This document shows, piece by piece, positions 46,428-58,627 of a DNA stretch of 64,000 nt (position 1 is the first letter of the stretch; each line of letters begins with the position of its first letter). This DNA comes from Tardiphaga robiniae (GTDB lineage Bacteria; Pseudomonadota; Alphaproteobacteria; Rhizobiales; Xanthobacteraceae): the NCBI RefSeq assembly GCF_001618955.1, contig NZ_LVYV01000055.1:186001-250000 (forward strand), given 5' to 3'. Below the pieces are notes generated by a model, which was not told the DNA's origin, did not search any database, and saw only the letters and a program-made list of their open reading frames with translations. The position numbers and the translations under genes are program-made.

Positions 46428-47183
46428 TCACGTCGCACGAACATGGCCGAGTGCCAGGCCGATGGTGTGCGCCGCTTCCATCACGTGAACGGCGTATTCC
46501 TTGATCTGCTTTCGTTTGACCCGGATGTCCGGGCCAGACATGCCGATGGCTCCAACGAGTTCACCGGAGCGTCCAACGATGGCGCAAGCACAGGCGGCGA
46601 TACCTTCCCGCCATTCGCCATGCAACACTGACGAGTAGCCTTGTACCCGTGCCGCATGGATGTCTTCGCGCAACTCCTCGATGGTCGTTCGCGTCGTATC
46701 CGTATAACGCCTGAGATGTGGGCGAAAGTTCTCCAGATATTCGTCTGGCATTTGCGCGAGCATCGCCTTCCCGGTTGCCATGGTGAATGCAGGCGCACGC
46801 ATGCCGACGCTGGTATGCGCACGGATATGATGCGCGCTTTCAATCTTGTCCACATAGACAACGTCGGTGCCCTCGAGCACCGACAGATGAACGGTCTCTC
46901 CGGTGACTTCAGCCAGCGTCGTCATCGCCGGGCGTGCGATACGGATCAGATCCATGCGCTGAATGACGTGATTGCCGAGCACCCATAGCTTGGTTGTGAG
47001 CTCGTAGGTGCTGTGCGGCGGAATCTGGCGAACGAAGCCCTGCGATTGCAGCGTCGCCAGCAGTCGATGCACATTGCTCTTGGTGAACTTCAGCTCATTG
47101 GCGAGATCGGTGACCCCGCGCGGCTGCTCGCTCATCGCGAGCGCCTCGACGAGCCTCAGTCCCTTGATAAATGCCTTATCCAT
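46428..47183 (-). CDS. IclR family transcriptional regulator
   Basis: 251 residues. An N-terminal winged helix (GLRLVEALAMSEQPRGVTDLA and TKSNVHRLLATLQSQG) is followed by the IclR effector domain (GETVHLSVLEGTDVVYVDKI, ATGKAMLA, GIAACACAIVG). These proteins usually respond to an aromatic or aliphatic acid and bind short palindromes. It is the last gene of the leftward ABC importer operon, so it is probably co-expressed with it. The three-half-site palindrome at 51533-51558 is the best candidate operator; regulation of both divergent operons is inferred. Confidence 0.93.
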   Translation of the reverse strand: MDKAFIKGLRLVEALAMSEQPRGVTDLANELKFTKSNVHRLLATLQSQGFVRQIPPHSTYELTTKLWVLGNHVIQRMDLIRIARPAMTTLAEVTGETVHLSVLEGTDVVYVDKIESAHHIRAHTSVGMRAPAFTMATGKAMLAQMPDEYLENFRPHLRRYTDTTRTTIEELREDIHAARVQGYSSVLHGEWREGIAACACAIVGRSGELVGAIGMSGPDIRVKRKQIKEYAVHVMEAAHTIGLALGHVRAT

Positions 47184-47266
47184 CCAAGCAGCCGATGTGG
47201 GGGAGTTCTCTGTTGCGAACAGACCGGCGGCCCTGGGCCGCCGGCCTCATTGTTGTATGGCGCGAT

Positions 47267-48355
47267 TTACTGGGCAAGCAGTGCGTTCAGCTTTTCCTGC
47301 GCATATTCTTCATTGGTTGAATTGCCAGCGGGCGAAGGCGCCCCCCAGAAGTCCGGGCTCCATTCGATCGCCTTGGAGATGTTCTCAGGATTGTTCGCCC
47401 AATAGCGCGCGACGTTCTTATCCGTCGCCGCGTCGAACACGACCTTCGATGGAAGCGCGACCGGGAAAGTGGAGGTCAGCTGGGCGGCGCGCTTGGGGTC
47501 GAGACGCCAGGACAGCAGCTTGAGTGCGTTATCGTAGTTCGGCGCGCCCTTCGGGATCGAGAAGAAGTCGTAATAGACGAAGCCCTGATTGAAGGTGAGA
47601 TCAATCGGAGCGCCTTCCAGTGCCAGTTTGCTCATCGAGCCCGTATAGGCCTGGCACATATCGGCTTCGCCATCGAGGATCAGCTGCGGCGGCTGCGCGG
47701 CGGTGGTCCACCATTTGACGATATGCGGCTTGATCTCTTTGATCTTCTTGAGCGCACGCTCCATGTCGATCGGATACAGCTTGCTCTTGTCGACACCGTC
47801 GGCCATCAGCGCGGCCTCGAAGGTGAAGCGCGGCCAGGCTGGCATGCAGCGGCGCCCCGGAAACTTCTTCACGTCCCAGAAGTCGGCCCAGTTCTGCGGT
47901 GCCTTATCGCCCTTGAACTTGTCCTTGTTGTAGACGAGGCCGACGCCGATCACCTGCAGCGCAATACCCTTCTTGCGCTTCAGATTGTCCGGCATCGCCG
48001 CCAGGGTCTTCTGCGCGGATTCCGACAGTTTGGAATAGTCGATGTCAGCCAGGCAGCAGTCGCCGAGCAGCTTGGTTTCCTGATCGAAGATGAAGGTCAG
48101 ATCCCACTGCGCCTTGCCGGCTTCGGCCTGCGCCTTGATGCGCGGACCGCTGCGCGCTTCCTGCACGGTGACGACCTTGATGCCGGTTTCCTTCTCGAAC
48201 GGATCGTACATCACCTTGCGCAGCGCATCGCCATAGCCGCCGCCTGGATCCTGCATGATGACGACGTTGCTCTGGGCAACGGCCAGACCCGTCCCCATGG
48301 CGATGAACGCCGCCGAAGCCAAGGCCGGCAGCCTAAAGCGTTTCATTCCCAGCAT
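47267..48355 (-). CDS. ABC transporter substrate-binding protein (spermidine/putrescine-type)
   Basis: 362 residues with a Sec signal peptide ending about AVAQ. The body is a type II periplasmic fold: VVIMQDPGGGYGDALRKVMYDPFEKET near the start, then KKFPGRRCMPAW and MCQAYTGSMSKLAL. This resembles PotD/AfuA-type proteins that bind polyamines, opines or metal complexes. GGAGGAG lies eight bases before the ATG. The permease gene is 31 bases upstream. Ligand identity cannot be read here. Confidence 0.9.
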   Translation of the reverse strand: MLGMKRFRLPALASAAFIAMGTGLAVAQSNVVIMQDPGGGYGDALRKVMYDPFEKETGIKVVTVQEARSGPRIKAQAEAGKAQWDLTFIFDQETKLLGDCCLADIDYSKLSESAQKTLAAMPDNLKRKKGIALQVIGVGLVYNKDKFKGDKAPQNWADFWDVKKFPGRRCMPAWPRFTFEAALMADGVDKSKLYPIDMERALKKIKEIKPHIVKWWTTAAQPPQLILDGEADMCQAYTGSMSKLALEGAPIDLTFNQGFVYYDFFSIPKGAPNYDNALKLLSWRLDPKRAAQLTSTFPVALPSKVVFDAATDKNVARYWANNPENISKAIEWSPDFWGAPSPAGNSTNEEYAQEKLNALLAQ

Positions 48356-48386
48356 AGTATGTCTCCTCCTGTTTGATCGTTTGTCA

Positions 48387-50180
48387 TCAGGTCGCTTTTT
48401 GCGACGTTGCGAGCACTGGCCGGGCGAGGAACAGTCCTCCCACGACCAGCAGCACTTCGAGCGTGGACACGACAGCCAGTACCGGATTGAGCCGGTAATT
48501 GATGTCGCCCCACAGCATCAACGGAAGCGTCTTCAGTTGCGCGCTCGACAGGAACAGGGTCAGCACCAATTCGTCGAACGAATGCAGGAACGCAAAGAAG
48601 GTCGCGGCCGCAAGGCCCGGCGCAATGGCCGGCAGCGTCACCAGCCGCAGCACCGTGAGCGACGACGCGCCATGGACCGCGGCGGCCTGTTCGAGCCGCG
48701 AGTCCACGCCCTGCAGCGCAGCAGACAGGATCACCACCACAATCGGCAAACCTCCGATGGCATGGGCCGCCGCAAGGCCAAACACCGAGCCGACCAGATC
48801 GAACTTCAGGAATAGCGTGTAAAGCGACAGGCCGAGCACCACCGGCGGCACGATGATCGGGCTGACCAGCAGCAGCATGATCACAGATTTGCCGCGCACA
48901 TTACCCCTGACGATGCCCAGCGCCGCGCATGTGCCGAGACCGACCGCAATGAAGGCCGAGACTGCCGCGATCAGCGCGGATGTCCAGAACGCGCGCATCC
49001 AGTTGGTGTCGGAGAAGAACTGCTCGTACCAGCGCAGCGAGAAGCCCGGCGGCGGGAAGGTCAGATAGCTGGCGCTGCTGAACGAGATGATCATGACGAC
49101 GATGATGGGTAGGATCAGCAGCGCGACCACCACGCCGCCCATCAGACGGACCGTCCATGTGCCGCAACTGGCCGGGAGCATGCCGAATAGCCGGAGCAGC
49201 GGCCAGCCGATGGCGTCAGCGAATGCGCTGCCGAAGCTGCGACGTGCGGTGCCGGACGTTGCCGCTAGTGCGGCCTTCCCTGCTGTCGTCTCGGTGAGCT
49301 TGCGCCCGCCCCAGATGAATTCCAGGCCAAGGAAACGTCCGGCGATGGCGACCACCAGCAGCGTGATCAGCAACAGCACGACGCCCAGCGCTTGCAGGAA
49401 GCCCTCCGACGTCACCGAGTCCGCCTGCTGCGTGATATGCATGGCGAACATCTGGTCGCCCGGGCCACCGAGCAGCGTCGGCGTGATGAAGAAGCCGATC
49501 GCGGCCACGAAAACCAACAGGAAGCCGGCGCCGATGCCGGGCAGCGTCAGCGGCAGCAGAACCCGCCAGAATACGGCGATGGGCCCGGCACCGCTGGCCA
49601 GCGCCGCGCGCGTCAGGCCAGGATCCAGCCGCGACACGCTCGAATAGATGGTCAGCACCATCAGCGGCAGCAGCACCGCCGTCATGCCGAGCAGCACTGT
49701 GCCGCGATGAAACAAGAGCTGAACCGGCTCGCTCAGGATACCGATCGATACCAGGAACTTGTTGACCGGGCCGTTGCGGCCGAGCAGCACCATCCAGGCA
49801 TAGGTGCGGATCAGGATCGCGATGAAGTATGGCAGCACGATCGCGGTGGCGATCAGAGCACGGGTAATGCCGCGGGTGCGATGGATCAGCAGCGCGGTGG
49901 GATAGCCGAACAAAAGGCACAGGAATGCGACCGTGACCGAGATCTGCATAGTCCGGACCAGCGATTCCCAATAGAGCGGCACCGCAAAGACGCGCTGAAA
50001 ATAGGTCAGCCAGCTCGGCCCGCTGATGCTGATGCGAATGAGATCGACCAGCGGCAGCAGATAGATGAACGACAGGAAAGCGACCGCGGGCAGCAGCAGC
50101 AGCGCGGGGTTCTTGAGCTTCATGGCCAGGCTGGAACTCGCCTGATGCCGCGGCTCCTCGGACAGCGAGATCGTCGTCAT
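48387..50180 (-). CDS. Double-length ABC permease (fused PotB-PotC type)
   Basis: 597 residues containing two binding-protein-dependent permease domains in one chain, roughly 20-290 and 340-590, each with six spans. The EAA-type loops appear as RAALASGAGPIAVFWRVLLPL in the first half and QAAAVHGASSLTVLRLV in the second. Fused permeases are typical of the ferric-iron and thiamine (ThiP, FbpB) importers and occur in some polyamine-type systems. Its start overlaps the ATPase stop by four bases. It forms the whole transmembrane pore of the importer. Confidence 0.92.
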   Translation of the reverse strand: MTTISLSEEPRHQASSSLAMKLKNPALLLLPAVAFLSFIYLLPLVDLIRISISGPSWLTYFQRVFAVPLYWESLVRTMQISVTVAFLCLLFGYPTALLIHRTRGITRALIATAIVLPYFIAILIRTYAWMVLLGRNGPVNKFLVSIGILSEPVQLLFHRGTVLLGMTAVLLPLMVLTIYSSVSRLDPGLTRAALASGAGPIAVFWRVLLPLTLPGIGAGFLLVFVAAIGFFITPTLLGGPGDQMFAMHITQQADSVTSEGFLQALGVVLLLITLLVVAIAGRFLGLEFIWGGRKLTETTAGKAALAATSGTARRSFGSAFADAIGWPLLRLFGMLPASCGTWTVRLMGGVVVALLILPIIVVMIISFSSASYLTFPPPGFSLRWYEQFFSDTNWMRAFWTSALIAAVSAFIAVGLGTCAALGIVRGNVRGKSVIMLLLVSPIIVPPVVLGLSLYTLFLKFDLVGSVFGLAAAHAIGGLPIVVVILSAALQGVDSRLEQAAAVHGASSLTVLRLVTLPAIAPGLAAATFFAFLHSFDELVLTLFLSSAQLKTLPLMLWGDINYRLNPVLAVVSTLEVLLVVGGLFLARPVLATSQKAT

Positions 50181-51328
50181 GTCAGCACCCAGCAGTCTTC
50201 CGGACCCCAGCTCACATGCAGGCGATCGCCAACATCGGGCAGCGGCCGCCTAGCGGTGTCGGTGCAGCGGATCAGCAGCGTGTCGCCGCCGTCCATCTGC
50301 GCCTCGATGCGCAGGATCTCACCAAGGAAGATCGCCGACGTCACAGTCACCGGCGTCGAGCTTGCGGTCGGCTCATTGGCAATCGCAATGCGCTCGGGCC
50401 GCACCAGCACGGTGACGCGGCCAACATCGATGGCGTCGCGGCTCTCGGCATCGAACACATAGCCGGCGCGGTTCTTCAGCGTCACAGTGGTGCCGCGCTT
50501 CTGCATGATCTCGGCTTCAATCAGATTGCTCTCGCCGACAAACGACGCCACGAAACGATTGGACGGGTGGCGATAGATCTCGAGTGGGCGGCCGATCTGC
50601 ACGATCTTGCCGGCATCCAGCACGGCGATGCGATCGCTCATGGTGAGCGCTTCGCCCTGATCATGCGTCACGAACAGGATCGTGCTGCCGATCGTCTGGT
50701 GCAGATCGCGTATCTCGATCTGGATCGATTCGCGCAGCCGGCGGTCGAGCGCGCTGAGCGGCTCGTCCATCAGCACGACCTTCGGCCGCATCACGATGGC
50801 GCGCGCAATCGCGACGCGTTGCTGCTGTCCGCCGGACATTTCCGACGGCGATTTGTTCGCATGATCCGACAGACGCATGATTTCCAGCGTCTCGGCGACG
50901 CGCCGCTCGGTGGTGGCGCGATCGACGCCGGCCATGCGCAGCGGGAACGCGACATTCTGTGTCACCGTCATATTGGGAAACAGCGCATAGCTCTGGAACA
51001 CCATGCCGAATCCACGCTTATGCGTGGGCACGTTGTGCACCGGCCTGCCGTCCACGAGAATCTCGCCGCCGTCGAGGCTCTGGAAACCGGCCAGCAGGTT
51101 CAGCAATGTGGTCTTGCCGCTACCGGACGGGCCGAGCAGCGTGATGAATTCGCCGGGTTCGATATCGAGATTGATGCGATTGACGGCATGGAACTGGCCG
51201 TATCGTTTCTCGGCATCGCGAACTGCAATGCGCGAACCGATGACCTGACGCTCGCTTGCGCCGCCCGACTGCGATGCCCGAACACCCGCGCCGGGATATC
51301 CCACGCGCAGCGCCAATGGCTCAGCCAT
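50177..51328 (-). CDS. ABC transporter ATP-binding protein (PotA/FbpC type)
   Basis: 383 residues. Walker A is LLGPSGSGKTTLL, the Q-loop is MVFQSYALFPNMT, the signature is SGGQQQRVAIARA and Walker B is VVLMDEPLSALD, followed by the H-loop in FVTHDQGEALT. The C-terminal TOBE domain (from about residue 270) is typical of polyamine and iron ABC importers. I use ATG 51328, six bases after GGGAGG; ATG 51331 is too near that site. It is first in the leftward operon (ATPase, permease, binding protein, IclR). A GTTCTA half-site lies just upstream in the leader. Confidence 0.93.
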   Translation of the reverse strand: MAEPLALRVGYPGAGVRASQSGGASERQVIGSRIAVRDAEKRYGQFHAVNRINLDIEPGEFITLLGPSGSGKTTLLNLLAGFQSLDGGEILVDGRPVHNVPTHKRGFGMVFQSYALFPNMTVTQNVAFPLRMAGVDRATTERRVAETLEIMRLSDHANKSPSEMSGGQQQRVAIARAIVMRPKVVLMDEPLSALDRRLRESIQIEIRDLHQTIGSTILFVTHDQGEALTMSDRIAVLDAGKIVQIGRPLEIYRHPSNRFVASFVGESNLIEAEIMQKRGTTVTLKNRAGYVFDAESRDAIDVGRVTVLVRPERIAIANEPTASSTPVTVTSAIFLGEILRIEAQMDGGDTLLIRCTDTARRPLPDVGDRLHVSWGPEDCWVLT

Positions 51329-51345
51329 CATCAACCTCCCTGGTC

Positions 51346-51362
51346 GTTCTATATTATGAGAC
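51346..51362. promoter_or_regulatory. Imperfect GTTCTA-type half-site near the importer start
   Basis: GTTCTATATTATGAGAC: a perfect left half-site GTTCTA and a right half that keeps only three of six bases of TAGAAC. It overlaps the leader of the ABC ATPase gene, 18 bases before its start, and may be a weak second binding site for the IclR regulator. Confidence 0.4.
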
Positions 51363-51498
51363 GTTATTCCAATTATTGTTGGCATGACGCATCGTCTTGT
51401 CAAGTGAATGCGCGGTGCGACGCCGCGCCAATCATCATCGACTTACCGACGGCTTTGCATTTTCCCCTATCCGCAAAGCGCTCCGCGACACAAACGGA

Positions 51499-51528
51499 TT
51501 GACAGCCGCGGCGCCGCGCGACTAATTT
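51499..51528 (+). promoter_or_regulatory. Candidate promoter for the rightward catabolic operon
   Basis: A perfect -35 hexamer TTGACA at 51499-51504 is followed after 18 bases by TAATTT (51523-51528), a weak -10. The palindromic operator begins five bases further on, where a repressor would block RNA polymerase. The start codon of the first gene is at 51580. Confidence 0.5.
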
Positions 51529-51532
51529 TATT

Positions 51533-51558
51533 TAGAACTACGTTCTACAATATAGAAC
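51533..51558. promoter_or_regulatory. Three-half-site palindromic operator, probably for the IclR regulator
   Basis: TAGAACTACGTTCTA (51533-51547) is a perfect inverted repeat with a three-base spacer. GTTCTACAATATAGAAC (51542-51558) is a second perfect inverted repeat with a five-base spacer that shares the middle half-site. IclR-family proteins often recognise GTTC/GAAC-containing palindromes, so the co-located IclR gene is the likely binder (inference). It lies between the candidate -10 and the ribosome binding site of the CoA-transferase gene. Confidence 0.7.
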
Positions 51559-51579
51559 AAATAAATCGGGAGGCGAATT

Positions 51580-52386
51580 GTGGTAAGCGATCTTCGCGCG
51601 TTGGCGAAGTATGTGGAGCCGGGAGTCCGGCTGGCGCTGCCGGTGGATTATGCCGGCGTCTCGATGGCGATGACGCGCCCGATCATTGAGCGCAACGCGC
51701 GCAATCTCGATCTGGTCTGTGTGCCGACCGGTGGCCTTCAGGTGGACCAGCTCATCGGTGCCGGTCTGGTTCGGTCGGTCGAGACCAGCGCCGTATTGCT
51801 CGGCGAAGCCGGCGGCGCGCCGCGCTTCAACGCAGCCGTCAAGGACGGCGCGATCGCATTGAAGGACGCCACCTGCCCCGCTATCCATGCCGGCCTGATG
51901 GCCGCGCAAAAAGGCAGCCCATTCATGCCAATGCGCGGGCTGATCGGCAGCGACCTGCTGCACCACCGCAGCGACTGGCGCGTTATCGACAATCCGCTGG
52001 CGGATGGCGGCGATCCCATCGTGCTCATCCCCGCGATCAAACCGGACATCACGATCTTCCATGCACCGATGGCCGACCGATTCGGCAATGTGTGGATCGG
52101 GCGACGCCGCGAGCTCGCCGCGATGGCCTATGCATCGGCCACCACGCTTGTCACTGTCGAGCGCATCGTGGACGAAAGCCTGCTCGCCAGCGAGATGAGC
52201 GCGGCGGGCGCGCTGCCGGCGCTCTATGTCACCGAAGTCGCCGTCGCGCCGAAGGGCGCGTGGCCTTACGGCCTGTGGGGCGAATATCCGACCGACACCA
52301 CCGAGATCCTGCGCTATGCGCGCGCCGCGCGCAGCGCCGTGGGTTTTGCCGACTACATGACGAACGCACAGATGGAACCCGCATGA
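51580..52386 (+). CDS. CoA-transferase subunit alpha (class I, GctA/IpdA-like)
   Basis: 268 residues. A two-layer class I CoA-transferase fold is suggested by GVSMAMTRPIIERNARNLDLV, PTGGLQVDQLIGAGLVRSVE and the later IKPDITIFHAPMADRFGNV, which matches glutaconate/steroid-ring CoA-transferase alpha subunits. It works with the beta subunit encoded immediately downstream, whose ATG overlaps its stop. GTG 51580 has GGGAGG six bases upstream. It probably activates an organic acid with CoA. It is the first gene of the rightward operon. Confidence 0.88.
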   Translation: MVSDLRALAKYVEPGVRLALPVDYAGVSMAMTRPIIERNARNLDLVCVPTGGLQVDQLIGAGLVRSVETSAVLLGEAGGAPRFNAAVKDGAIALKDATCPAIHAGLMAAQKGSPFMPMRGLIGSDLLHHRSDWRVIDNPLADGGDPIVLIPAIKPDITIFHAPMADRFGNVWIGRRRELAAMAYASATTLVTVERIVDESLLASEMSAAGALPALYVTEVAVAPKGAWPYGLWGEYPTDTTEILRYARAARSAVGFADYMTNAQMEPA

Positions 52387-53153
52387 TGAGCGAGGTTCAC
52401 CCGCGCGAGATCCTGATCTGCACCATCGCCAAACTGCTCGACGGCGTCCGGCATGTCGCTGTCGGCGCGTCCTCGCCGATCCCCGCGGCCGGCGCCATGC
52501 TGCTGCGCGCACTGAGGCAGCAAGCCGGAGAGAAAGGCCCGCGCATCTCGATTCTCGGATCGGTGGAGCACAATTTCTTCACCAACGGCTCGGCCGAACT
52601 GTTCGATTGCGCCGGCCAGGGCCGCATCGATGCCTTCTGCCTCGGAGGCGGCCAGATCGACGGCCGCGGCAATGTCAACCTGGTGGGCACCGGCGACTAT
52701 CCGCAGACGCCAGTGCGATGGCCCGGCTCGTTCGGATCGGCCTATCTGTATTACGTCGTGCCGCGCGTGATCTTGTTTCGCGAGGAGCACACGCCGCGCG
52801 CTCTGGTCGAGAAGGTGGATTTCATCAGCACGCCCGGCGTCAGCAACGATGGCGTTTACCGCAGTGGCGGCCCGATCGCACTGCTGACCAGCAAGGCGCT
52901 GTTCCGCTTCGACAAGACGCGTCCGGGCTTCGACCTGCAGAGCATCCATCCCGGACACGACCTCGCAGGTATCAAGGACGCCACCGGCTTTCAGTTCGCC
53001 CATGAAAGCCAGCCGGAACAGACCGCGCTGCCGAATCCGCAGACGCTGGCTTTGCTGCGCGGGCGTGTTTACGACGAGGTCGCAGAAACCTATCCGGACT
53101 TCGCCGCGCAGATGCGGCGCGAGATCGAACGGCCGCTGTCCCATGCATCCTGA
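52383..53153 (+). CDS. CoA-transferase subunit beta (class I, GctB/IpdB-like)
   Basis: 256 residues. ILICTIAKLLDGVRHVAVGASSPIPAAGAM, LGGGQIDGRGNVNLVG, FISTPGVSNDG and the C-terminal TGFQF and PQTLALLRG match beta subunits of glutaconate-type CoA-transferases. The catalytic glutamate of the family may be the one in GSVEHNFF, but the surrounding motif is not canonical. It is coupled to the alpha gene by an ATGA overlap. The heterodimer would transfer CoA between two acids; the substrate is unknown. Confidence 0.88.
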   Translation: MMSEVHPREILICTIAKLLDGVRHVAVGASSPIPAAGAMLLRALRQQAGEKGPRISILGSVEHNFFTNGSAELFDCAGQGRIDAFCLGGGQIDGRGNVNLVGTGDYPQTPVRWPGSFGSAYLYYVVPRVILFREEHTPRALVEKVDFISTPGVSNDGVYRSGGPIALLTSKALFRFDKTRPGFDLQSIHPGHDLAGIKDATGFQFAHESQPEQTALPNPQTLALLRGRVYDEVAETYPDFAAQMRREIERPLSHAS

Positions 53154-53186
53154 CGGGACCGGCCAGCAACGACACGGAGACGATGC

Positions 53187-55499
53187 GTGAGTGAGATCAA
53201 GCGGATCCCGCATTGCAGTCACTGGGGCGCCTATACGATCCTCGTGCAGGACGAGCAGATCGTGGGCATCGAGCCGTTCGCCCACGATCCCGCCCCCTCG
53301 CCGATCATCCATTCGGTACCGGAATGGGCCAATCCTGAACGCCGCGTTCTGCGTCCGATGGTGCGCTCCGGCTGGCTCGACAAGCGCGAACACAGCGATC
53401 GGCGCAAGCGCGGCGCGGAGAAGTTCGTGTCCGTCAGCTGGGATGAGGCGACCACGCTGGTGGCCGACGAAATCCGCCGCGTCTCCAGTACCCATGGCAA
53501 TGCGTCGATCTTCGCGGGCTCCTATGGCTGGACCAATTCGGGCCGGCTGCATCATGCGTCGTCTTTGCTCAAGCGCATGCTCAATCTGGTCGGCGGTTTC
53601 ACCCGGCATGTGGATACGTATTCCATTGCTGCTGGCCCGGTGATTTTGCGCCATACGCTGGGAAGCTCGGATGCTTGCGACGGTCAGGCCAATACGCTCG
53701 ACACCATAGCCGCACACACCGAGACGCTGGTGGTGTTCGGCGCGCTGTCGCCGCGCACCGCGCAGACCGAAGCCGGTGGCATCGGCGCCCACCGCCTCGA
53801 ATCCTATCTCAGGAAAATCGCCGAGCGCGGCATCCGCATCGTTCACGTCTCGCCGCTGAAGGACGATATGCCGGATTGGGTCGATGCCGAATGGTGGCCG
53901 ATCCGCCCGAACACCGATACCGCGCTGATGCTGGGCCTCGCCGGCGAGATCGTGAAGGCAGGCCGGCCCGCCCGGGATTTCCTTGATCGCTGCACCAGCG
54001 GCGCCGAGCGACTGCTCGGCTATCTCGACGGCTCGTCCGATGGCATTCGCAAGGATGCAGCCTGGGCCGCGGAGATCTGCGGGCTCGATGCCGATGGCAT
54101 CCGCCAGCTGGCGAGACGCCTCGTCGATACCCGCAGCATGCTTACCGTGAGCTGGAGCCTGCAGCGCGCGCATCATGGCGAGCAGCCGTTCTGGGCAGCA
54201 CTCGGCCTCGCCTCCATCGTCGGCCAGATCGGGCTGCCGGGCGGCGGTGTCGGCTACGGCTATGCCTCGCTGGGCGGCGTCGGCTCGCCCTTCAATCTCG
54301 GCAAGTCACCGGCCATCTCGCAACTGACGCGCCCGATCGACAGTTTCATCCCGGTGGCGCGCATCAGCGACATGCTGCTCAATCCCGGCGCGACCTTCAC
54401 CTATGAGGGCGAGACGCGAACCTATCCGGACACAAGGCTGGTCTACTGGGCAGGCGGCAATCCCTATCATCACCATCAGGATCTCAACCGGCTGTCCGAA
54501 GCCTGGACGCGGCCCGAGACCATCATCGTCCAGGATCCGATGTTCACCGCGACGGCGCAGCGCGCCGATATCGTGCTACCGGCAACCACATCGATCGAAC
54601 GCAATGACCTCGCCGGCAACAAGCGCTCCGACTTCATCATCGCGATGAAGCAGGCCATCAAGCCGGTCGGAGACTCGCTGCCCGACTTCGAGATTTTCGA
54701 CCGCATCGCCGGCAAGCTCGGCGTTGCCGACCGCTTCAACGAAGGCCGCGACGAAATGGGCTGGGTCCGTCATCTCTACGAGGCGAGTCGGCAGGACGCT
54801 TCCGAGCGGCTCGGCTTCGACATGCCCGACTTCGAAACATTCTGGCACGACGGCTACGCGCGCTGCCCGGTGCGCGCCGACCACACTTTCCTCGCCGATT
54901 TCCGCATCGATCCCGAGGCGCATGCGCTCAAGACCGAAAGCGGTAAGATTGTGCTCGGCAGCGAGACCCTCGCCCGGCTCGGTTATGCCGATTGTCCGTC
55001 GCATCCGGCCTGGGTTGAGCCGGCGGAATGGCTCGGCAACGGCAGCGATGCGTCCGATTTGCATATGATCTCGCATCAGCCGGCCGGCCGACTGCACAGC
55101 CAGATCGAAACCGGCGTCGCCAGCGTGGCCAACAAGCGCAACGGCCGCGAACAGGCACGGCTGCATCCCGACGACGCCGCCGCACGCGGCGTCAGTGACG
55201 GACAGACCATCCGCATCTGGAATGCACGTGGCGCCTGCCTCGCCACTGCTGACGTCACCGACAGCGTGCGCCCCGGCGTGCTGGTGCTGCCGACCGGCGC
55301 CTGGTTCACCCCGCGCGCCGAGACGGGTCTCGAAGTCGCCGGCAATCCGAACGTGCTGACGCTAGACATCGGCACCTCGCAATTCGGCCAGGGCTGCTCG
55401 GCGCATACATGCCTGGTCCGCGCCGAACCCCATATTGCAGATCAACGCGACGCTTTTGAAGAATACCAGGACAGACTGGTTGCACTCGCGACCGCCTGA
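53187..55499 (+). CDS. Molybdopterin-dependent oxidoreductase, DMSO-reductase family (BisC/DorA-like)
   Basis: 770 residues. SYGWTNSGRLHHASSLLKR and RHVDTYSIAAGP carry the Tyr-Gly-Trp and the serine that binds Mo in DMSO/TMAO/biotin-sulfoxide reductases. No N-terminal Fe-S cysteine motif is present, as expected for that branch. There is no Tat signal (it starts MSEIKRIPHCSHWGAY), so the enzyme should be cytoplasmic, like BisC. The C-terminal domain ends with the molybdopterin-dinucleotide binding fold (HSQIETGVA and VLPTGAWFTP). GTG 53187 follows GGAGA. It would reduce an S- or N-oxide or a related substrate. Confidence 0.93.
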   Translation: MSEIKRIPHCSHWGAYTILVQDEQIVGIEPFAHDPAPSPIIHSVPEWANPERRVLRPMVRSGWLDKREHSDRRKRGAEKFVSVSWDEATTLVADEIRRVSSTHGNASIFAGSYGWTNSGRLHHASSLLKRMLNLVGGFTRHVDTYSIAAGPVILRHTLGSSDACDGQANTLDTIAAHTETLVVFGALSPRTAQTEAGGIGAHRLESYLRKIAERGIRIVHVSPLKDDMPDWVDAEWWPIRPNTDTALMLGLAGEIVKAGRPARDFLDRCTSGAERLLGYLDGSSDGIRKDAAWAAEICGLDADGIRQLARRLVDTRSMLTVSWSLQRAHHGEQPFWAALGLASIVGQIGLPGGGVGYGYASLGGVGSPFNLGKSPAISQLTRPIDSFIPVARISDMLLNPGATFTYEGETRTYPDTRLVYWAGGNPYHHHQDLNRLSEAWTRPETIIVQDPMFTATAQRADIVLPATTSIERNDLAGNKRSDFIIAMKQAIKPVGDSLPDFEIFDRIAGKLGVADRFNEGRDEMGWVRHLYEASRQDASERLGFDMPDFETFWHDGYARCPVRADHTFLADFRIDPEAHALKTESGKIVLGSETLARLGYADCPSHPAWVEPAEWLGNGSDASDLHMISHQPAGRLHSQIETGVASVANKRNGREQARLHPDDAAARGVSDGQTIRIWNARGACLATADVTDSVRPGVLVLPTGAWFTPRAETGLEVAGNPNVLTLDIGTSQFGQGCSAHTCLVRAEPHIADQRDAFEEYQDRLVALATA

Positions 55500-55514
55500 G
55501 AGGAAACAGAAACC

Positions 55515-56084
55515 ATGACCACCCCAGCCATCAGCCGCTTCCCCGTCCCCGAAATCTCCAGCCTGCCGGAGGACATCCGCACCCGCATCCTCGCGGTGCA
55601 GGAAAAGTCCGGCTTCGTGCCCAACGTGTTCTTGACGCTGGCACATCGGCCCGACGAATTCCGCGCCTTCTTCGCCTATCATGATGCGCTGATGGACAAG
55701 CCAGGCCCGATCACCAAGGCCGAGCGCGAGATGATCGTGGTGGCCACCAGCAATGCCAACCAGTGCCAATATTGCGTGGTGGCGCATGGCGCCATCCTGC
55801 GCATCCGCGCCAAGAACCCGCTGATTGCCGACCAGATCGCGGTGAACTATCGCAAGGCTGATATCACGCCGCGGCAACGCGCGATGCTCGATTTCGCCAT
55901 GAAGGTCTCGATGCAGGCTTACGAAGTCGGCGATGCCGATATCGAGGCGCTGAAGCGCCACGACTTCACGGAGGACGACGTCTGGGATATCGCTGCCATC
56001 GCCGCCTTCTTCGGCATGTCGAACCGGTTAGCGAATGTCACCAGCATGCGGCCGAACGACGAGTTCTTCGCCATGGGGCGCTGA
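55515..56084 (+). CDS. Carboxymuconolactone decarboxylase / AhpD-like CxxC protein
   Basis: 189 residues, helical. The AhpD motif is complete: a glutamate in AEREMIVVA, then NQCQYCVVAHGA with the CxxC and its histidine. Members of the peroxidase-related subgroup act as thiol-dependent reductases of hydroperoxides or related chemistry. It sits between the molybdoenzyme and the aldolase genes, 15 bases after the former, suggesting a redox-coupled or detoxifying task in the pathway. Confidence 0.9.
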   Translation: MTTPAISRFPVPEISSLPEDIRTRILAVQEKSGFVPNVFLTLAHRPDEFRAFFAYHDALMDKPGPITKAEREMIVVATSNANQCQYCVVAHGAILRIRAKNPLIADQIAVNYRKADITPRQRAMLDFAMKVSMQAYEVGDADIEALKRHDFTEDDVWDIAAIAAFFGMSNRLANVTSMRPNDEFFAMGR

Positions 56085-56161
56085 CCCGCCTCACACCGGA
56101 TATAATGATCGCCCGCAGCGGCCGGTAAGAGCCGCAGCGACGACTTTCGAGGAAACAAGCC

Positions 56162-56848
56162 ATGACGCATCCAAGCCCCGCAGACGTCGCAACCCGGCAG
56201 GCCATCATCGATGCCTGCCACGAAATGTCGGCTGCTGGTATCAATCAGGGCACGTCGGGCAATATCAGCGTCCGCACCGAGGACGGCATCCTGCTGACGC
56301 CGTCCGGTGTTCCCTACGACAGCATGCGGCCGGAAGACATCGTTGCGATGAAATGGGATGGCTCGTGGACGGCACCGCAAGGCCGCGTGCCCTCGACGGA
56401 GTGGCGTTTCCACCTCGACATACTCAAGGCCAAGCCAGAAACGAATGCCGTCGTGCACGCGCATCCGATCTTCTGCACGATCATCGCAATCATGAACCGC
56501 AGCATTCCCGCGATCCACTACATGATCGCGGCGGCCGGCGGCAACGACATCCCCTGCGCACCCTATGCGCAGTATGGCACCGCGGAATTGTCGCAAGCGG
56601 CACTGGAGGCGCTGCGCTATCGCCGCGCCTGCCTGCTCGCCCATCACGGGCTGATCGCTATCGGCCCTAATCTGCGCAAGGCGATGTGGCTTGCGGTGGA
56701 GGTGGAGGTGCTCGCCAAGCAGTATCACGGCTGCTTGCAACTCGGCACGCCGCCGCTGCTGCCGGATGCCGAGATCGACAGCATCCTGAAGCGATGGGGA
56801 CAATACGGCCTGCGCGACAGCGACGGCACGCCGAAAACCTCGACCTAA
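56162..56848 (+). CDS. Class II aldolase/adducin family protein (fuculose-1-phosphate aldolase-like)
   Basis: 228 residues. QGTSGNISVR binds the phosphate. PSTEWRFH supplies the family's catalytic glutamate, HAHPIFCT the first two zinc histidines, and LLAHHGLIAIG the third. FucA/RhaD/AraD-type enzymes cleave or epimerise a sugar phosphate using Zn. A PfkB kinase and an SDR follow, a typical set for oxidising, phosphorylating and cleaving a sugar or polyol. Confidence 0.92.
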   Translation: MTHPSPADVATRQAIIDACHEMSAAGINQGTSGNISVRTEDGILLTPSGVPYDSMRPEDIVAMKWDGSWTAPQGRVPSTEWRFHLDILKAKPETNAVVHAHPIFCTIIAIMNRSIPAIHYMIAAAGGNDIPCAPYAQYGTAELSQAALEALRYRRACLLAHHGLIAIGPNLRKAMWLAVEVEVLAKQYHGCLQLGTPPLLPDAEIDSILKRWGQYGLRDSDGTPKTST

Positions 56849-56881
56849 CCAACCAGCACCAACAATTGCGAGACTTGCCAT

Positions 56882-57841
56882 ATGGCCCATCCCCACGACG
56901 TCAGCGTCTGCGGCACCTACATCCTGGACGTCCTCGGCGTCCCCATCACTGAAATCCCGGCCGGCGGCGGCCGCGCGCTGATCGATGAGATCCGGCTCAC
57001 GGTCGCCGGCACCGCGGGCGGCACTGTGGTGCCCTGCGCGCGCCTCGGACTGAAGGCGCTCGCTGTCGGCGCGGTCGGCGCCGACGAGAAGGCCGACTGG
57101 GTGCTGAATGCGATGGAGCGCGAGGGCATTGATATTTCGGTGATGGAGCGGATGGCCGGCGTGCCGACCTCCGCCACCATCCTGCCGATCCGTCCGGATG
57201 GCTCGCGGCCGGTGCTGCATGCGCGCGGCGCCTCCGCGCGCTGGAAGATTTCGCCCGAAGCGCAGAAAGCCGCTTGCCGCAGCAAGGTCCTGCATCTTGG
57301 CGGCGTCGGGTCGCTGCTGGCGATGGACGGCGAGCCCACGGTCGCGCTGCTGCGCGATGCCAAGGCGGCCGGCTGCATCACCACCGTCGATCTCATCCAG
57401 GCACGCGGCGAGACGCTGGCGCTGGTCGAACCGCTGATGCCCTATACGGACTTCTTCATGCCGAGCATCGACGAGACCCACGCGCTGGTCGGCACCGACG
57501 ACCCCGCGGCCTGCGCGCAATATTTCATCGGTAAGGGCGCCGGTGCCTGCGCGATCTCGCTCGGCGAGCACGGCTCTTTCGTCATGACGCGTGACGGGCG
57601 GCAATTCACGGTACCGGCCTTCGAGGTGACGGTGCGCGACACCTCCGGCTGCGGCGATTCCTATACCGGCGGCTTCATCGCCGGCCTCGTCCGCGACTGG
57701 GACCTGCTGGACTGCGCAAAACTGGCGACAGCCACCGCCGCCATCGTCGCGACGGGGCTCGGTTCCGGCGCCAATCTCGTGTCCTTCGAGGAGACGGTCA
57801 AGGCGATGAACACGCTGCCCGTCCGCGGCGCGCGCGCCTAA
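56882..57841 (+). CDS. PfkB-family carbohydrate kinase
   Basis: 319 residues of ribokinase fold: the N-terminal VSVCGTYILDVLGVP, the AGGTVVPCARLGLKA loop, and DTSGCGDSYTGGF near residue 255, where the usual GAGD reads GCGD but the catalytic aspartate remains. It should phosphorylate a sugar or polyol with ATP. It lies directly between the aldolase and SDR genes, so its product is probably the aldolase substrate. Confidence 0.92.
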   Translation: MAHPHDVSVCGTYILDVLGVPITEIPAGGGRALIDEIRLTVAGTAGGTVVPCARLGLKALAVGAVGADEKADWVLNAMEREGIDISVMERMAGVPTSATILPIRPDGSRPVLHARGASARWKISPEAQKAACRSKVLHLGGVGSLLAMDGEPTVALLRDAKAAGCITTVDLIQARGETLALVEPLMPYTDFFMPSIDETHALVGTDDPAACAQYFIGKGAGACAISLGEHGSFVMTRDGRQFTVPAFEVTVRDTSGCGDSYTGGFIAGLVRDWDLLDCAKLATATAAIVATGLGSGANLVSFEETVKAMNTLPVRGARA

Positions 57842-57880
57842 TTCATCCGTCGACAGCTTTCATAGAAGCAGGAACATCAC

Positions 57881-58627
57881 ATGACCAGACATGCCATCGT
57901 CACAGGTGCCAGCCGCGGAATCGGACGCGCCATCGCCCTTGGCCTCGCCAAGCGGGGCTACAATCTCGCTCTGACCGACATCGCAGCGCAGGAGAGCGCG
58001 CTGCTGGAGACCGTCACGGATGTGAAGAAGCTCGGCGGCAACTGCATTCCGGTTCTGGCCGATGTCAGCAAGCTCGAGGATTGCCAGCGCTCGGTTGCGG
58101 AAGCGGTCGCGGGTCTCGGCCATGTCGATGTTCTCGTCAACAATGCCGGCATCCTGCGTCTCGCGACCATCGAGGAGACCACGCCCGAACACTGGGACCA
58201 GACCTTCGCCGTGAACGTCCGCGGCGTGTTCCAGATGACCCAGGCGATGGTTGTCCACATGAAGGAGCGCAAATACGGGCGCATCGTCAACATTGCCTCG
58301 CTGGCTGCACGCACGGGCGGCCCCGGCCAATCGCACTATGCCGCGTCGAAATCCGCTGTGGTGGGCTTCACGCGGGTGTCGTCGATGGAATTCGGTGGCC
58401 ACGGCATCACGGTGAATGCCGTATGCCCCGGCATCATCCTGACCGAAATGGGCCGCAACAATCTGCGCGATCCGGAGCGGGTCACCTATTTCGAGAAGAT
58501 CACCGATCTGCATCGGCTCGGCGAGCCGGAAGACGTCGTCGGCCCCGTCGCATTCTTCGCCTCCGACGATTCCGCCTTCGTGACGGGCCAGGCACTCAAC
58601 GTGGATGGCGGTATCTTCTACAGCTGA
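57881..58627 (+). CDS. Short-chain dehydrogenase/reductase (FabG-like)
   Basis: 248 residues, classical SDR. VTGASRGIGRAIALG binds NAD(P), VLVNNAGIL is the NNAG motif, the catalytic serine precedes AARTGGPGQSHYAASKSAV (YxxxK), and the C-terminus NVDGGIFYS is typical of polyol or 3-oxoacyl reductases. The operon setting with a sugar kinase and an aldolase favours a polyol/sugar dehydrogenase. It is the last gene of the rightward operon. Confidence 0.92.
   Translation: MTRHAIVTGASRGIGRAIALGLAKRGYNLALTDIAAQESALLETVTDVKKLGGNCIPVLADVSKLEDCQRSVAEAVAGLGHVDVLVNNAGILRLATIEETTPEHWDQTFAVNVRGVFQMTQAMVVHMKERKYGRIVNIASLAARTGGPGQSHYAASKSAVVGFTRVSSMEFGGHGITVNAVCPGIILTEMGRNNLRDPERVTYFEKITDLHRLGEPEDVVGPVAFFASDDSAFVTGQALNVDGGIFYS

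What the first reader, a model, noticed from the sequence alone, without database searches (positions are those of the whole stretch)
46428..58627. Divergent IclR-controlled regulon: ABC importer opposite CoA-transferase, molybdoenzyme, AhpD-like, aldolase, kinase, SDR
I know of no described pathway that combines a polyamine-type importer, a class I CoA-transferase, a cytoplasmic DorA/BisC-type reductase, a CxxC AhpD-like protein and an SDR-kinase-class II aldolase triad. Spacing and overlaps indicate two coherent operons. A reducible (S- or N-oxide-like) substrate that is reduced, oxidised/phosphorylated, cleaved, and its acid fragment activated with CoA would use every gene.
Basis: partly seen in the sequence, partly recalled or inferred. 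Interest (0 to 1): 0.75.

Follow-up and report, generated by a model that had tools for sequence, protein, structure and literature searches.

The report
Uptake-and-breakdown regulon around aldolase Ald2
A soil bacterium carries a tightly conserved set of eleven genes, apparently switched by one local regulator, that imports an unidentified compound and breaks it down through an aldolase whose counterpart in a related bacterium is known to cut a sulfur-containing sugar phosphate; the substrate of the whole set is still unknown.

Summary
Observation confirmed: eleven intact genes at 46428-58627 form two divergent operons. All eleven are collinear in 26 of 27 related loci, the 27th cut by its contig end, and the system recurs rearranged from Bosea and Paracoccus to Rhizobacter. 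A 17-bp palindrome, GTTCYAN5TRGAAC, stands at the catabolic start in 36 of 36 loci (at most 1 mismatch) and at the importer start (0-2 mismatches).

The aldolase appears to be the orthologue of Rhodopseudomonas Ald2 (RPA4655), which in vivo cleaves 5-(methylthio)ribulose-1-phosphate to DHAP and (methylthio)acetaldehyde (PMC5893883). The host Tardiphaga has no detectable MtnA or MtnK, so the dehydrogenase and kinase presumably feed the aldolase: a DHAP-shunt variant. The molybdoenzyme keeps the DMSO-reductase residues. The 'CoA-transferase' lacks the catalytic glutamate and resembles the decarboxylase AibAB. Elsewhere dehydrogenase, kinase and aldolase are exchanged for non-orthologous counterparts. 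One distant carrier (L167) shows importer and sugar enzymes without the molybdoenzyme or CoA-fold pair.

Substrate unproven; a methylthio or methylsulfinyl pentose-type compound is my leading guess. New variant of a known kind.

The parts
46428..47183 (-). IclR-family regulator, last gene of the importer operon; presumed regulator of both operons
   Evidence: Pfam IclR_C 140 bits, HTH_IclR 47.5; best NCBIfam BhcR 167.6 bits, below its cut-off of 350; present in 26 of 27 loci. Binding to the palindromes is inferred.
47267..48355 (-). Periplasmic binding protein (SBP_bac_8, PotD superfamily); close relative of PDB 3RPW
   Evidence: 3RPW 799 bits over all 362 residues; 3RPW equals the Rhodopseudomonas G199 protein by eye
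48387..50180 (-). ABC permease, two permease halves joined in one 597-aa ORF
   Evidence: two BPD_transp_1 stretches; PotB-like residues 61-278, PotC-like 349-587
50177..51331 (-). ABC ATPase (start by ribosome-binding site; the ORF opens at 51403)
   Evidence: TIGR01187 potA 367.5 bits, cut-off 355.6
51346..51362 (.). Operator-like palindrome next to the importer start (GTTCTATATTATGAGAC, two mismatches in the window)
   Evidence: same place in 36 of 36 intergenic regions: 21 exact, 11 one mismatch, 4 two mismatches
51375..51403 (-). Promoter-like TTGACA-17-AACAAT of the importer operon
   Evidence: 10 of 12; the scan as a whole is not above chance; TGTCAA in 36 of 36 regions
51499..51528 (+). 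Promoter-like TTGACA-18-TAATTT of the catabolic operon
   Evidence: read by eye, not listed by the scan; TTGACA in 35 of 36 regions
51542..51558 (.). Operator-like palindrome GTTCTACAATATAGAAC next to the catabolic operon start
   Evidence: 32 exact, 4 one mismatch of 36; the only other exact match in the host genome lies inside a called ORF
51580..52386 (+). CoA-transferase-fold alpha subunit (glutaconate CoA-transferase / AibA / IpdA family)
   Evidence: Pfam CoA_trans 34.5 bits; PDB hits AibA, GctA, IpdA
52383..53153 (+). CoA-transferase-fold beta subunit without the catalytic Glu (Ile56 there); AibB-like
   Evidence: model pLDDT 76.9, best Foldseek hits AibA/AibB decarboxylase
53187..55499 (+). 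BisC/DMSO-reductase-family bis-MGD enzyme, no leader, presumed cytoplasmic
   Evidence: TIGR00509 1009 bits, cut-off 1017.55; Tyr113/Trp115/Ser146 align with Tyr114/Trp116/Ser147 of 1EU1
55515..56084 (+). AhpD-like CxxC protein (TIGR01926), possible thiol redox partner of the molybdoenzyme
   Evidence: 213.7 bits, cut-off 81.8; C84/C87/H91 in 37 of 37 rows; adjacent to the molybdoenzyme in 36 of 40 loci
56162..56848 (+). FucA-type class II aldolase, inferred orthologue of Ald2 (RPA4655) of R. palustris
   Evidence: 54.6% to E. coli FucA; tree; PMC5893883
56882..57841 (+). PfkB-family sugar kinase
   Evidence: PfkB 145.6 bits; nearest PDB relative by sequence YdjH
57881..58627 (+). SDR dehydrogenase (FabG-like)
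   Evidence: 231 NCBIfam models match; of the 25 shown none passes an equivalog cut-off, one subfamily (NF005559) is passed, 218.6 against 215

Best explanation
It is one IclR-controlled uptake-and-catabolism regulon. An ABC importer brings in a compound with a pentose- or pentitol-like chain. The SDR makes the 2-ketose and the PfkB kinase phosphorylates its end. The Ald2-type aldolase then splits it into DHAP, which enters glycolysis, and a short aldehyde that carries the substituent. This is a DHAP-shunt variant that does not need MtnA. The cytoplasmic BisC-type enzyme, perhaps served by the CxxC AhpD-like protein, reduces an S-oxide (or N-oxide) on the substrate or on the released fragment. 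The fragment's acid goes on through CoA chemistry, in which the Glu-less alpha/beta pair acts as an acyl-CoA decarboxylase or hydrolase rather than a transferase. Leading substrate guess: a methylthio- or methylsulfinyl-substituted five-carbon sugar or polyol. Shown: gene content, conservation, palindrome signal, active-site residues, no MtnA or MtnK found in the host. From the literature through inferred orthology: the aldolase reaction. Inferred: IclR binding, order of steps, S-oxide, CoA steps, substrate.
For: All 11 genes collinear in 26 of 27 loci. Palindromes at both starts. Aldolase: positions E80, H99, H101 and H161, which align with E73, H92, H94 and H154 of FucA, kept in 37 of 37 rows. 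Its clade groups, with moderate support 91/89, with four Bradyrhizobium-type aldolases, two of which sit beside mtnP- and mtnA-like genes. RPA4655 = Ald2, 5-(methylthio)ribulose-1-P aldolase in vivo. The gene numbers fit the order: binding protein RPA4648 (COG0687) plus seven genes is RPA4655; hmgA, given among RPA4670-4675, lies about 35 kb beyond the binding protein; each of the four Rhodopseudomonas genomes with the cluster has one FucA-like match at E<=1e-60, in the cluster. mtnA not found in the host and in 6 of 7 other Tardiphaga carriers tested (7 of the 10 known); MTR kinase not found in the host. Exchange of the triad for non-orthologous enzymes of the same classes, with a mixed case in L237. 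DMSO-reductase residues 39 of 39 rows. AibB-like fold and no catalytic Glu. 2-Methylthioethanol oxidises in air to the S-oxide 2-methylsulfinylethanol. A rhodanese-like ORF in L139 and an aldehyde-dehydrogenase-like ORF after IclR in Paracoccus versutus, both by eye.
Against: No assay. The binding protein's probable orthologue bound p-coumaric acid, which is neither a sugar nor a sulfur compound (PMC3223731). FucA-type aldolases accept various aldehydes (recalled), so a methylthio group is not required. A bona fide mtnK-mtnA-linked aldolase (L069) falls elsewhere in the tree, and two of the four nearest aldolases are not mtn-linked. L167 keeps importer and sugar enzymes without molybdoenzyme or CoA-fold pair in 21 kb; L074 and L140 keep molybdoenzyme and AhpD without sugar module. 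No aldehyde dehydrogenase or CoA-forming enzyme lies in the window's cluster. R. palustris may simply borrow the aldolase for MTA salvage. The BisC clade also occurs in unrelated contexts (L116-L134). The RPA numbers were matched by order and position, not by reading the CGA009 record.
Confidence: 0.4

Rival explanations
1. A sulfur-free version: the regulon catabolises an ordinary deoxypentose or pentitol (for example a 5-deoxypentitol) through SDR, kinase and aldolase, and the molybdoenzyme and AhpD serve redox repair.
For: Ald2-type enzymes also act on 5-deoxyribulose-1-P (PMC10986504 passages); 2-hydroxyacid dehydrogenase/FGGY/class II aldolase triads with ABC genes occur as plain operons (L064, L066, L070); L167 has importer and sugar enzymes without the molybdoenzyme.
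Against: The molybdoenzyme, AhpD and alpha/beta pair are conserved as strongly as the sugar enzymes in 26 of 27 close loci; a PotD-type binding protein is unusual for a plain sugar (recalled); CoA chemistry is not needed for acetaldehyde or glycolaldehyde.
Confidence: 0.23
2. The substrate is a conjugate. The core unit (CoA-fold pair, molybdoenzyme, AhpD) handles an acid or aromatic part, and the SDR/kinase/aldolase handles an attached sugar part.
For: The core unit exists without the sugar module in L074 (CTA-CTB-MO-AhpD-AcuI) and partly in L140, and the sugar module without the core in L167; sugar modules are exchanged as blocks; the probable orthologue RPA4648 bound p-coumaric acid.
Against: No hydrolase, esterase or glycosidase that would split a conjugate is in the cluster.
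Confidence: 0.2
3. The substrate is an aromatic or heteroaromatic polyol, aryl-(CHOH)n-CH2OH with n of 3 or more, split to an aryl aldehyde and DHAP.
For: p-Coumarate binding of RPA4648 (PMC3223731); ORFs that look like protocatechuate 4,5-dioxygenase genes beside the cluster in Ca. Burkholderia verschuerenii (L167, by eye).
Against: One instance of adjacency in a genome with many broken genes; arylglycerols are excluded, because a retro-aldol that releases DHAP needs at least a four-carbon chain.
Confidence: 0.1
4. The cluster is part of MTA/methionine salvage, as Ald2 is in R. palustris.
For: RPA4655 deletion data (PMC5893883).
Against: mtnA not found in the host and in three distant carriers tested, and MTR kinase not found in the host; mtnA lies about 200 kb away in Rhodopseudomonas; 13 of the 28 carrier genomes have a further FucA-like aldolase at E<=1e-60.
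Confidence: 0.06

Closest known systems
DHAP shunt (MtnP or MtnN/MtnK, MtnA, Ald2) of R. rubrum, R. palustris and some E. coli
   Same: Probably the same aldolase (Ald2/RPA4655 orthologue); DHAP plus an aldehyde as products; kinase before aldolase
   Different: No MtnA or MtnK found in the host; a dehydrogenase takes the place of the isomerase; own importer, regulator, molybdoenzyme and CoA-fold pair
L-fucose pathway (FucI-FucK-FucA)
   Same: 54.6% identical aldolase; kinase then retro-aldol to DHAP
   Different: Dehydrogenase instead of isomerase; PfkB instead of FGGY kinase in the window
AibAB/AibC of myxobacteria and IpdAB of steroid degraders
   Same: Glutaconate-CoA-transferase fold without a transferase Glu; AcuI-type reductases nearby in L139, L156 and L074 resemble the AibC role (recalled)
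   Different: Position 56 is Ile/Val, not Cys; 22-25% identity; substrate unknown
BisC/DorA/TorA reductases
   Same: Tyr, Trp and Ser of the DMSO-reductase site; no leader, as in BisC (recalled)
   Different: Distinct clade, next to an AhpD-like CxxC protein in 36 of 40 loci; just under the TIGR00509 cut-off

Membership tests
DHAP shunt | Ald2-type class II aldolase acting on 5-substituted ribulose-1-phosphates | tested here: inconclusive
   Inferred orthologue of RPA4655 by gene order and uniqueness; the CGA009 record was not read and activity not assayed
DHAP shunt | MtnA isomerase in the genome | tested here: not met
   TIGR00512: 0 matches in G000; 8 of 18 genomes tested have it
DHAP shunt | MtnK kinase | tested here: not met
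   TIGR01767: 0 matches in the host
DHAP shunt | MtnP phosphorylase or MtnN nucleosidase | not tested
   no search made
Class I CoA-transferase | Fold | tested here: met
   Pfam CoA_trans; Foldseek to AibB, GctB, IpdB, AtoDA, SCOT
Class I CoA-transferase | Catalytic Glu in the beta subunit | tested here: not met
   Ile/Val at position 56 in 38 of 38 cluster rows, no Glu on that strand in the 13-row family alignment. The placement rests on strand and motif spacing; HMMER left the region unaligned
BisC/DMSO reductase, S/N-oxide type | Ser Mo ligand, Tyr114, Trp116 | tested here: met
   39 of 39 rows; alignment to 1EU1; the roles of the residues are recalled
BisC/DMSO reductase, S/N-oxide type | TIGR00509 curated cut-off | tested here: not met
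   1009.1 bits against 1017.55, a near miss
BisC/DMSO reductase, S/N-oxide type | Reduction of an S- or N-oxide | not testable with these tools
   needs enzyme
L-fuculose-phosphate aldolase FucA | Subfamily NF005984 / equivalog TIGR01086 | tested here: inconclusive
   266 bits against 264 (met); 256.8 against 400.25 (not met)
Polyamine importer PotABCD | PotD equivalog binding protein | tested here: not met
   NF007048 54.3 bits against 582
AhpD-like peroxidase-related family TIGR01926 | Curated cut-off and CxxCxxxH motif | tested here: met
   213.7 against 81.8; 37 of 37 rows

The most novel reading that the evidence does not exclude
A previously undescribed, widely exchanged catabolic regulon for environmental organosulfur carbohydrates. 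A methylsulfinyl-substituted pentose or polyol is imported, its S-oxide is reduced in the cytoplasm by a BisC-type enzyme that takes electrons from a dedicated AhpD-like CxxC protein, and a dehydrogenase-kinase-Ald2 route that needs no MtnA frees DHAP. A Glu-less CoA-transferase-fold enzyme then processes the sulfur-bearing fragment. This would be a new terrestrial route to methanethiol and could supply some of the 'unknown enzymes' that act after Ald2 in R. palustris.
Probability: 0.2. Interest if true: 0.78.

Novelty: new variant of a known kind. Interest (0 to 1): 0.56.

Why it matters
If right, it gives a home, a regulator and partner genes to an aldolase so far studied, in the papers I saw, with MtnP and MtnA only. 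It proposes that dehydrogenase plus kinase can replace MtnK/MtnA in front of Ald2, and it names testable candidates for the unsolved steps from (methylthio)acetaldehyde or 2-(methylthio)ethanol to methanethiol, a volatile of the global sulfur cycle. The module exchanges across the class suggest which step each enzyme stands for. It also gives a setting to a molybdoenzyme-AhpD pair and to an AibAB-like enzyme of unknown reaction.

Tried and rejected
Polyamine import: rejected on PotD scores and on the p-coumarate result for the probable orthologue. Arylglycerol as substrate: rejected on chemistry, since retro-aldol release of DHAP needs R-CHOH-CHOH-CO-CH2OP; a paper search for it listed one genome paper, not read. 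A wider IclR regulon in the host: the second exact pattern match (C1:977470) lies inside a called ORF; the 18 further places with one mismatch were not followed, and the pattern as a whole is not enriched (20 places per strand against 68 for the reversed control). Structure of the extra Bradyrhizobium gene (L048:10717-11481): model failed, pLDDT 31.5; no Pfam or NCBIfam hit, so its function is open. Literature: 0 papers; 1, unrelated by title; RPA4649-4653 and RPA4655: only PMC5893883, for RPA4655; RPA4647, 4654, 4656-4658: 0; methylthioribulose with sulfoxide reductase: 5, unrelated by title; 3RPW: 1, unrelated; RPA4648: only PMC3223731. I therefore say only that these searches of this library found no description of the cluster. 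The 40 CoA-fold loci come from 40 of the 87 matching genomes; the 13 rows were chosen by hand; of the 80 loci the script looked at 27 (L145-L171), 24 of them with a binding protein of 62% or more. Script tables keep only the best non-overlapping hits. Gene calls in scripts use a simple GC3 rule and are rough; names given to ORFs of relatives without a family search (rhodanese, aldehyde dehydrogenase, LigAB, MtnP/MtnA beside aldolases, ClC, GlpD, the 23-locus CaiB cluster) are by eye.

Full report
What is there. The two operons diverge from a 248-bp gap. The permease is a single ORF holding two permease halves. The cluster was sought in 391 genomes of the family, drawn from a larger group, through its aldolase: 27 genomes besides the host hold a match of 86% identity or more. 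All 27 loci were fetched; 26 hold all eleven genes collinear, and the 27th (L041) ends at its contig end with five genes visible. In the host genus, 11 of 18 sampled genomes have it. A few genes look split or short in relatives (permease in L035, PfkB in L042, molybdoenzyme in L047, SDR in L049), which may be decay or sequencing error.

One regulon. The 36 intergenic regions aligned (window, 26 close and 9 distant loci) were recounted against GTTCYAN5TRGAAC: beside the catabolic start 32 are exact and 4 have one mismatch; beside the importer start 21 are exact, 11 have one and 4 have two mismatches, the window among the last. TTGACA is on the plus strand in 35 of 36 and on the minus strand (TGTCAA) in 36 of 36, although the general promoter scan of the window finds no more than chance. 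In a scan of 23 sources with one mismatch allowed, 15 had a pair (14 distinct loci), three had one site (the window, L164, L167) and five had none; of these, L158 and L160 do not contain the gap, and L074, L140 and L110 lack this importer arrangement. Control loci gave 6 hits in 2.02 Mb. The host genome has two exact matches, this one and one inside a called ORF. That IclR binds here is inference. In L237 the pair lies between the alpha gene and PfkB-SDR-IclR. In L154, however, aldolase-PfkB-SDR stand apart behind a second IclR-like gene (45%) and without the palindrome.

The system elsewhere. A scan of named genomes with the binding protein kept 80 loci, 24 of them at 62% or more; I examined 27, and besides them L067, L139 and pieces of some genomes. 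Most, as far as the stretches reach, show the same importer with the CoA-fold pair, often a CaiB-type class III transferase, the molybdoenzyme and AhpD. Exceptions: L167 has importer, aldolase, PfkB and SDR but neither CoA-fold pair nor molybdoenzyme in 21 kb; L165, an 8.3-kb contig, shows only importer, dehydrogenase and aldolase, and its genome gave no AhpD match; L067 has no AhpD or CaiB match. Two sugar modules alternate. Type A is aldolase, PfkB and SDR (Tardiphaga, Rhodopseudomonas, Bradyrhizobium, Bosea, L154, L157, L158, L160, L168). Type B is a D-2-hydroxyacid dehydrogenase, another aldolase clade, an FGGY kinase and, where the stretch reaches, a TPP enzyme (L067/L163, L139, Paracoccus L159 and L162, Pseudaminobacter L161/L232, Rhizobacter L164). 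In the tree the A and B aldolases are separate clades (99/95 and 99/97), and L237 couples a B aldolase with an A kinase and SDR. Replacement by non-orthologous enzymes of the same broad classes suggests that 'oxidise, phosphorylate, retro-aldol' is the needed sequence. In Rhizobacter (L164) twelve genes, from the ATPase to the molybdoenzyme, run in one direction. L074 (CTA-CTB-MO-AhpD-AcuI) and L140 (MO-AhpD-AcuI) show parts of the core without the sugar module.

The aldolase. It is 54.6% identical to E. coli FucA; the four Glu/His positions tested are kept in 37 of 37 rows (their catalytic roles are recalled). Its A clade groups, with moderate support (91/89, below the program's star), with four Bradyrhizobium-type aldolases: two sit beside genes that look like mtnP and mtnA (L062, L063) and two beside a ClC-like gene (L059, L061). 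Against a simple reading, the aldolase of an mtnK-mtnA-aldolase cluster (L069) falls elsewhere, on a long branch. The key link is to R. palustris. PMC3223731 (abstract, sections 10 and 14, and passages seen) lists RPA4648 as a COG0687 binding protein stabilised by p-coumaric acid. PMC5893883 (abstract, section 9 and passages seen) gives RPA4655 as Ald2, with deletion, complementation and labelled-metabolite data for 5-(methylthio)ribulose-1-P cleavage to DHAP and 2-(methylthio)acetaldehyde, and says that ald2 lies away from mtnP and mtnA. The cluster order makes the aldolase the seventh gene after the binding protein, the same spacing as 4648 to 4655. hmgA (homogentisate genes are RPA4670-4675 in PMC3223731) lies about 35 kb beyond the binding protein in G170. 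All four Rhodopseudomonas genomes with the cluster have a single FucA-like match at the threshold used, the one in the cluster. I did not read the CGA009 record itself, so this is a strong inference, not a look-up.

Not simply methionine salvage. mtnA was not found in the host, in 6 of the 7 other Tardiphaga carriers tested (10 are known), or in Pseudaminobacter, P. versutus and Rhizobacter; it is in 8 of the 18 genomes tested, among them Rhodopseudomonas, Bradyrhizobium and Bosea. The host has no MTR kinase match. MtnP and MtnN were not searched for. So in the host the ketose-1-phosphate cannot come from a recognisable MtnA, and the SDR and PfkB kinase are the natural suppliers. In R. palustris the enzyme may serve both.

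The molybdoenzyme and AhpD. The enzyme aligns end to end with mature DMSO reductase (632 bits) and has no leader; Tyr114, Trp116 and Ser147 are matched and kept in the 39 rows found among 41 loci. It scores just under the BisC family cut-off. This favours S-oxide (or N-oxide) chemistry without proving it. PMC10986504 (passages seen) reports that 2-methylthioethanol, the end product after Ald2 in that E. coli, oxidises in air to 2-methylsulfinylethanol, so S-oxides do arise on this route. The AhpD-like protein keeps CxxCxxxH in 37 of 37 rows and adjoins the molybdoenzyme in 36 of 40 loci with a molybdoenzyme of 60% or more; the four others are L067, L154, L116 and L164, whose stretch ends inside the molybdoenzyme gene. 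That it is the electron donor is my guess. Against: 19 loci of the wider clade (L116-L134) sit in varied contexts without an AhpD match.

The CoA-fold pair. Related pairs are common in the class (87 of 385 genomes with an alpha match at E<=1e-15); in the 40 loci fetched, a CaiB-type gene clusters in 23. The beta subunit has Ile/Val where the family's catalytic Glu is expected (38 of 38 rows; none of the 13 chosen family rows has Glu on that strand). The exact column rests on the strand after the first long helix in the model (53-57) and on spacing, because HMMER left this stretch unaligned. Foldseek places the model first with the decarboxylase AibA/AibB, then glutaconate CoA-transferase and IpdAB, then true CoA-transferases. 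I therefore read it as an acyl-CoA decarboxylase or hydrolase fed by another CoA-forming enzyme. The window's cluster contains no such enzyme, which is a gap.

Verdict. The regulon is real and conserved; DHAP-forming cleavage is likely (about 0.85); feeding by SDR and PfkB without MtnA is probable (about 0.7); an S-oxide step about 0.5; a methylthio-type substrate about 0.35. The p-coumarate result is unexplained. It is a new variant of a known kind, with a clear experimental path.

Noticed in passing
L059:6383-8836, L061:11405-13858 and rows marked '1 TAG': In many Bradyrhizobium-type genomes a FucA-like aldolase gene is followed in the same frame, past a single TAG stop, by more open frame (717-867 aa in many rows, under 300 aa in others); in L059 and L061 the next ORF looks like a ClC-type chloride channel. 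Could be a read-through pair or a recent fission.
   Followed up: partly
L048:10717-11481: Extra 254-aa gene between AhpD and aldolase in most Bradyrhizobium clusters, no Pfam or NCBIfam match; a remnant of about 49 codons persists in L052. Structure model failed.
   Followed up: partly
L064, L065, L066, L070: Operons with ABC genes, FGGY kinase, 2-hydroxyacid-dehydrogenase-like gene ('GDRFMLP' start), class II aldolase and (L064, L070) a GlpD-like gene: a likely DHAP-forming triad related to module B, substrate unknown.
   Followed up: no
L135 (G000:C17): The host's second BisC-family gene (46%) follows a TPP-enzyme-like gene, with CaiB-type, acyl-CoA-dehydrogenase-like and P450-like ORFs upstream; the TPP-molybdoenzyme neighbourhood repeats that of module B.
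   Followed up: no
L167:14428-18326: In Ca. Burkholderia verschuerenii, ORFs resembling protocatechuate 4,5-dioxygenase (LigB, LigA), an MFS transporter and an amidohydrolase follow the SDR; several genes of this locus look broken.
   Followed up: no
L119:7238-16206: Another BisC-family gene stands among two class II aldolase/adducin-like genes, a VOC-like gene, a CaiB-type gene and a CMD/AhpD-like gene, a second combination of the same enzyme classes.
   Followed up: no
L042, L047, L049, L035: PfkB split (L042), molybdoenzyme split (L047), SDR match short (L049) and permease match short (L035) in cluster copies; could be decay or assembly error.
   Followed up: no
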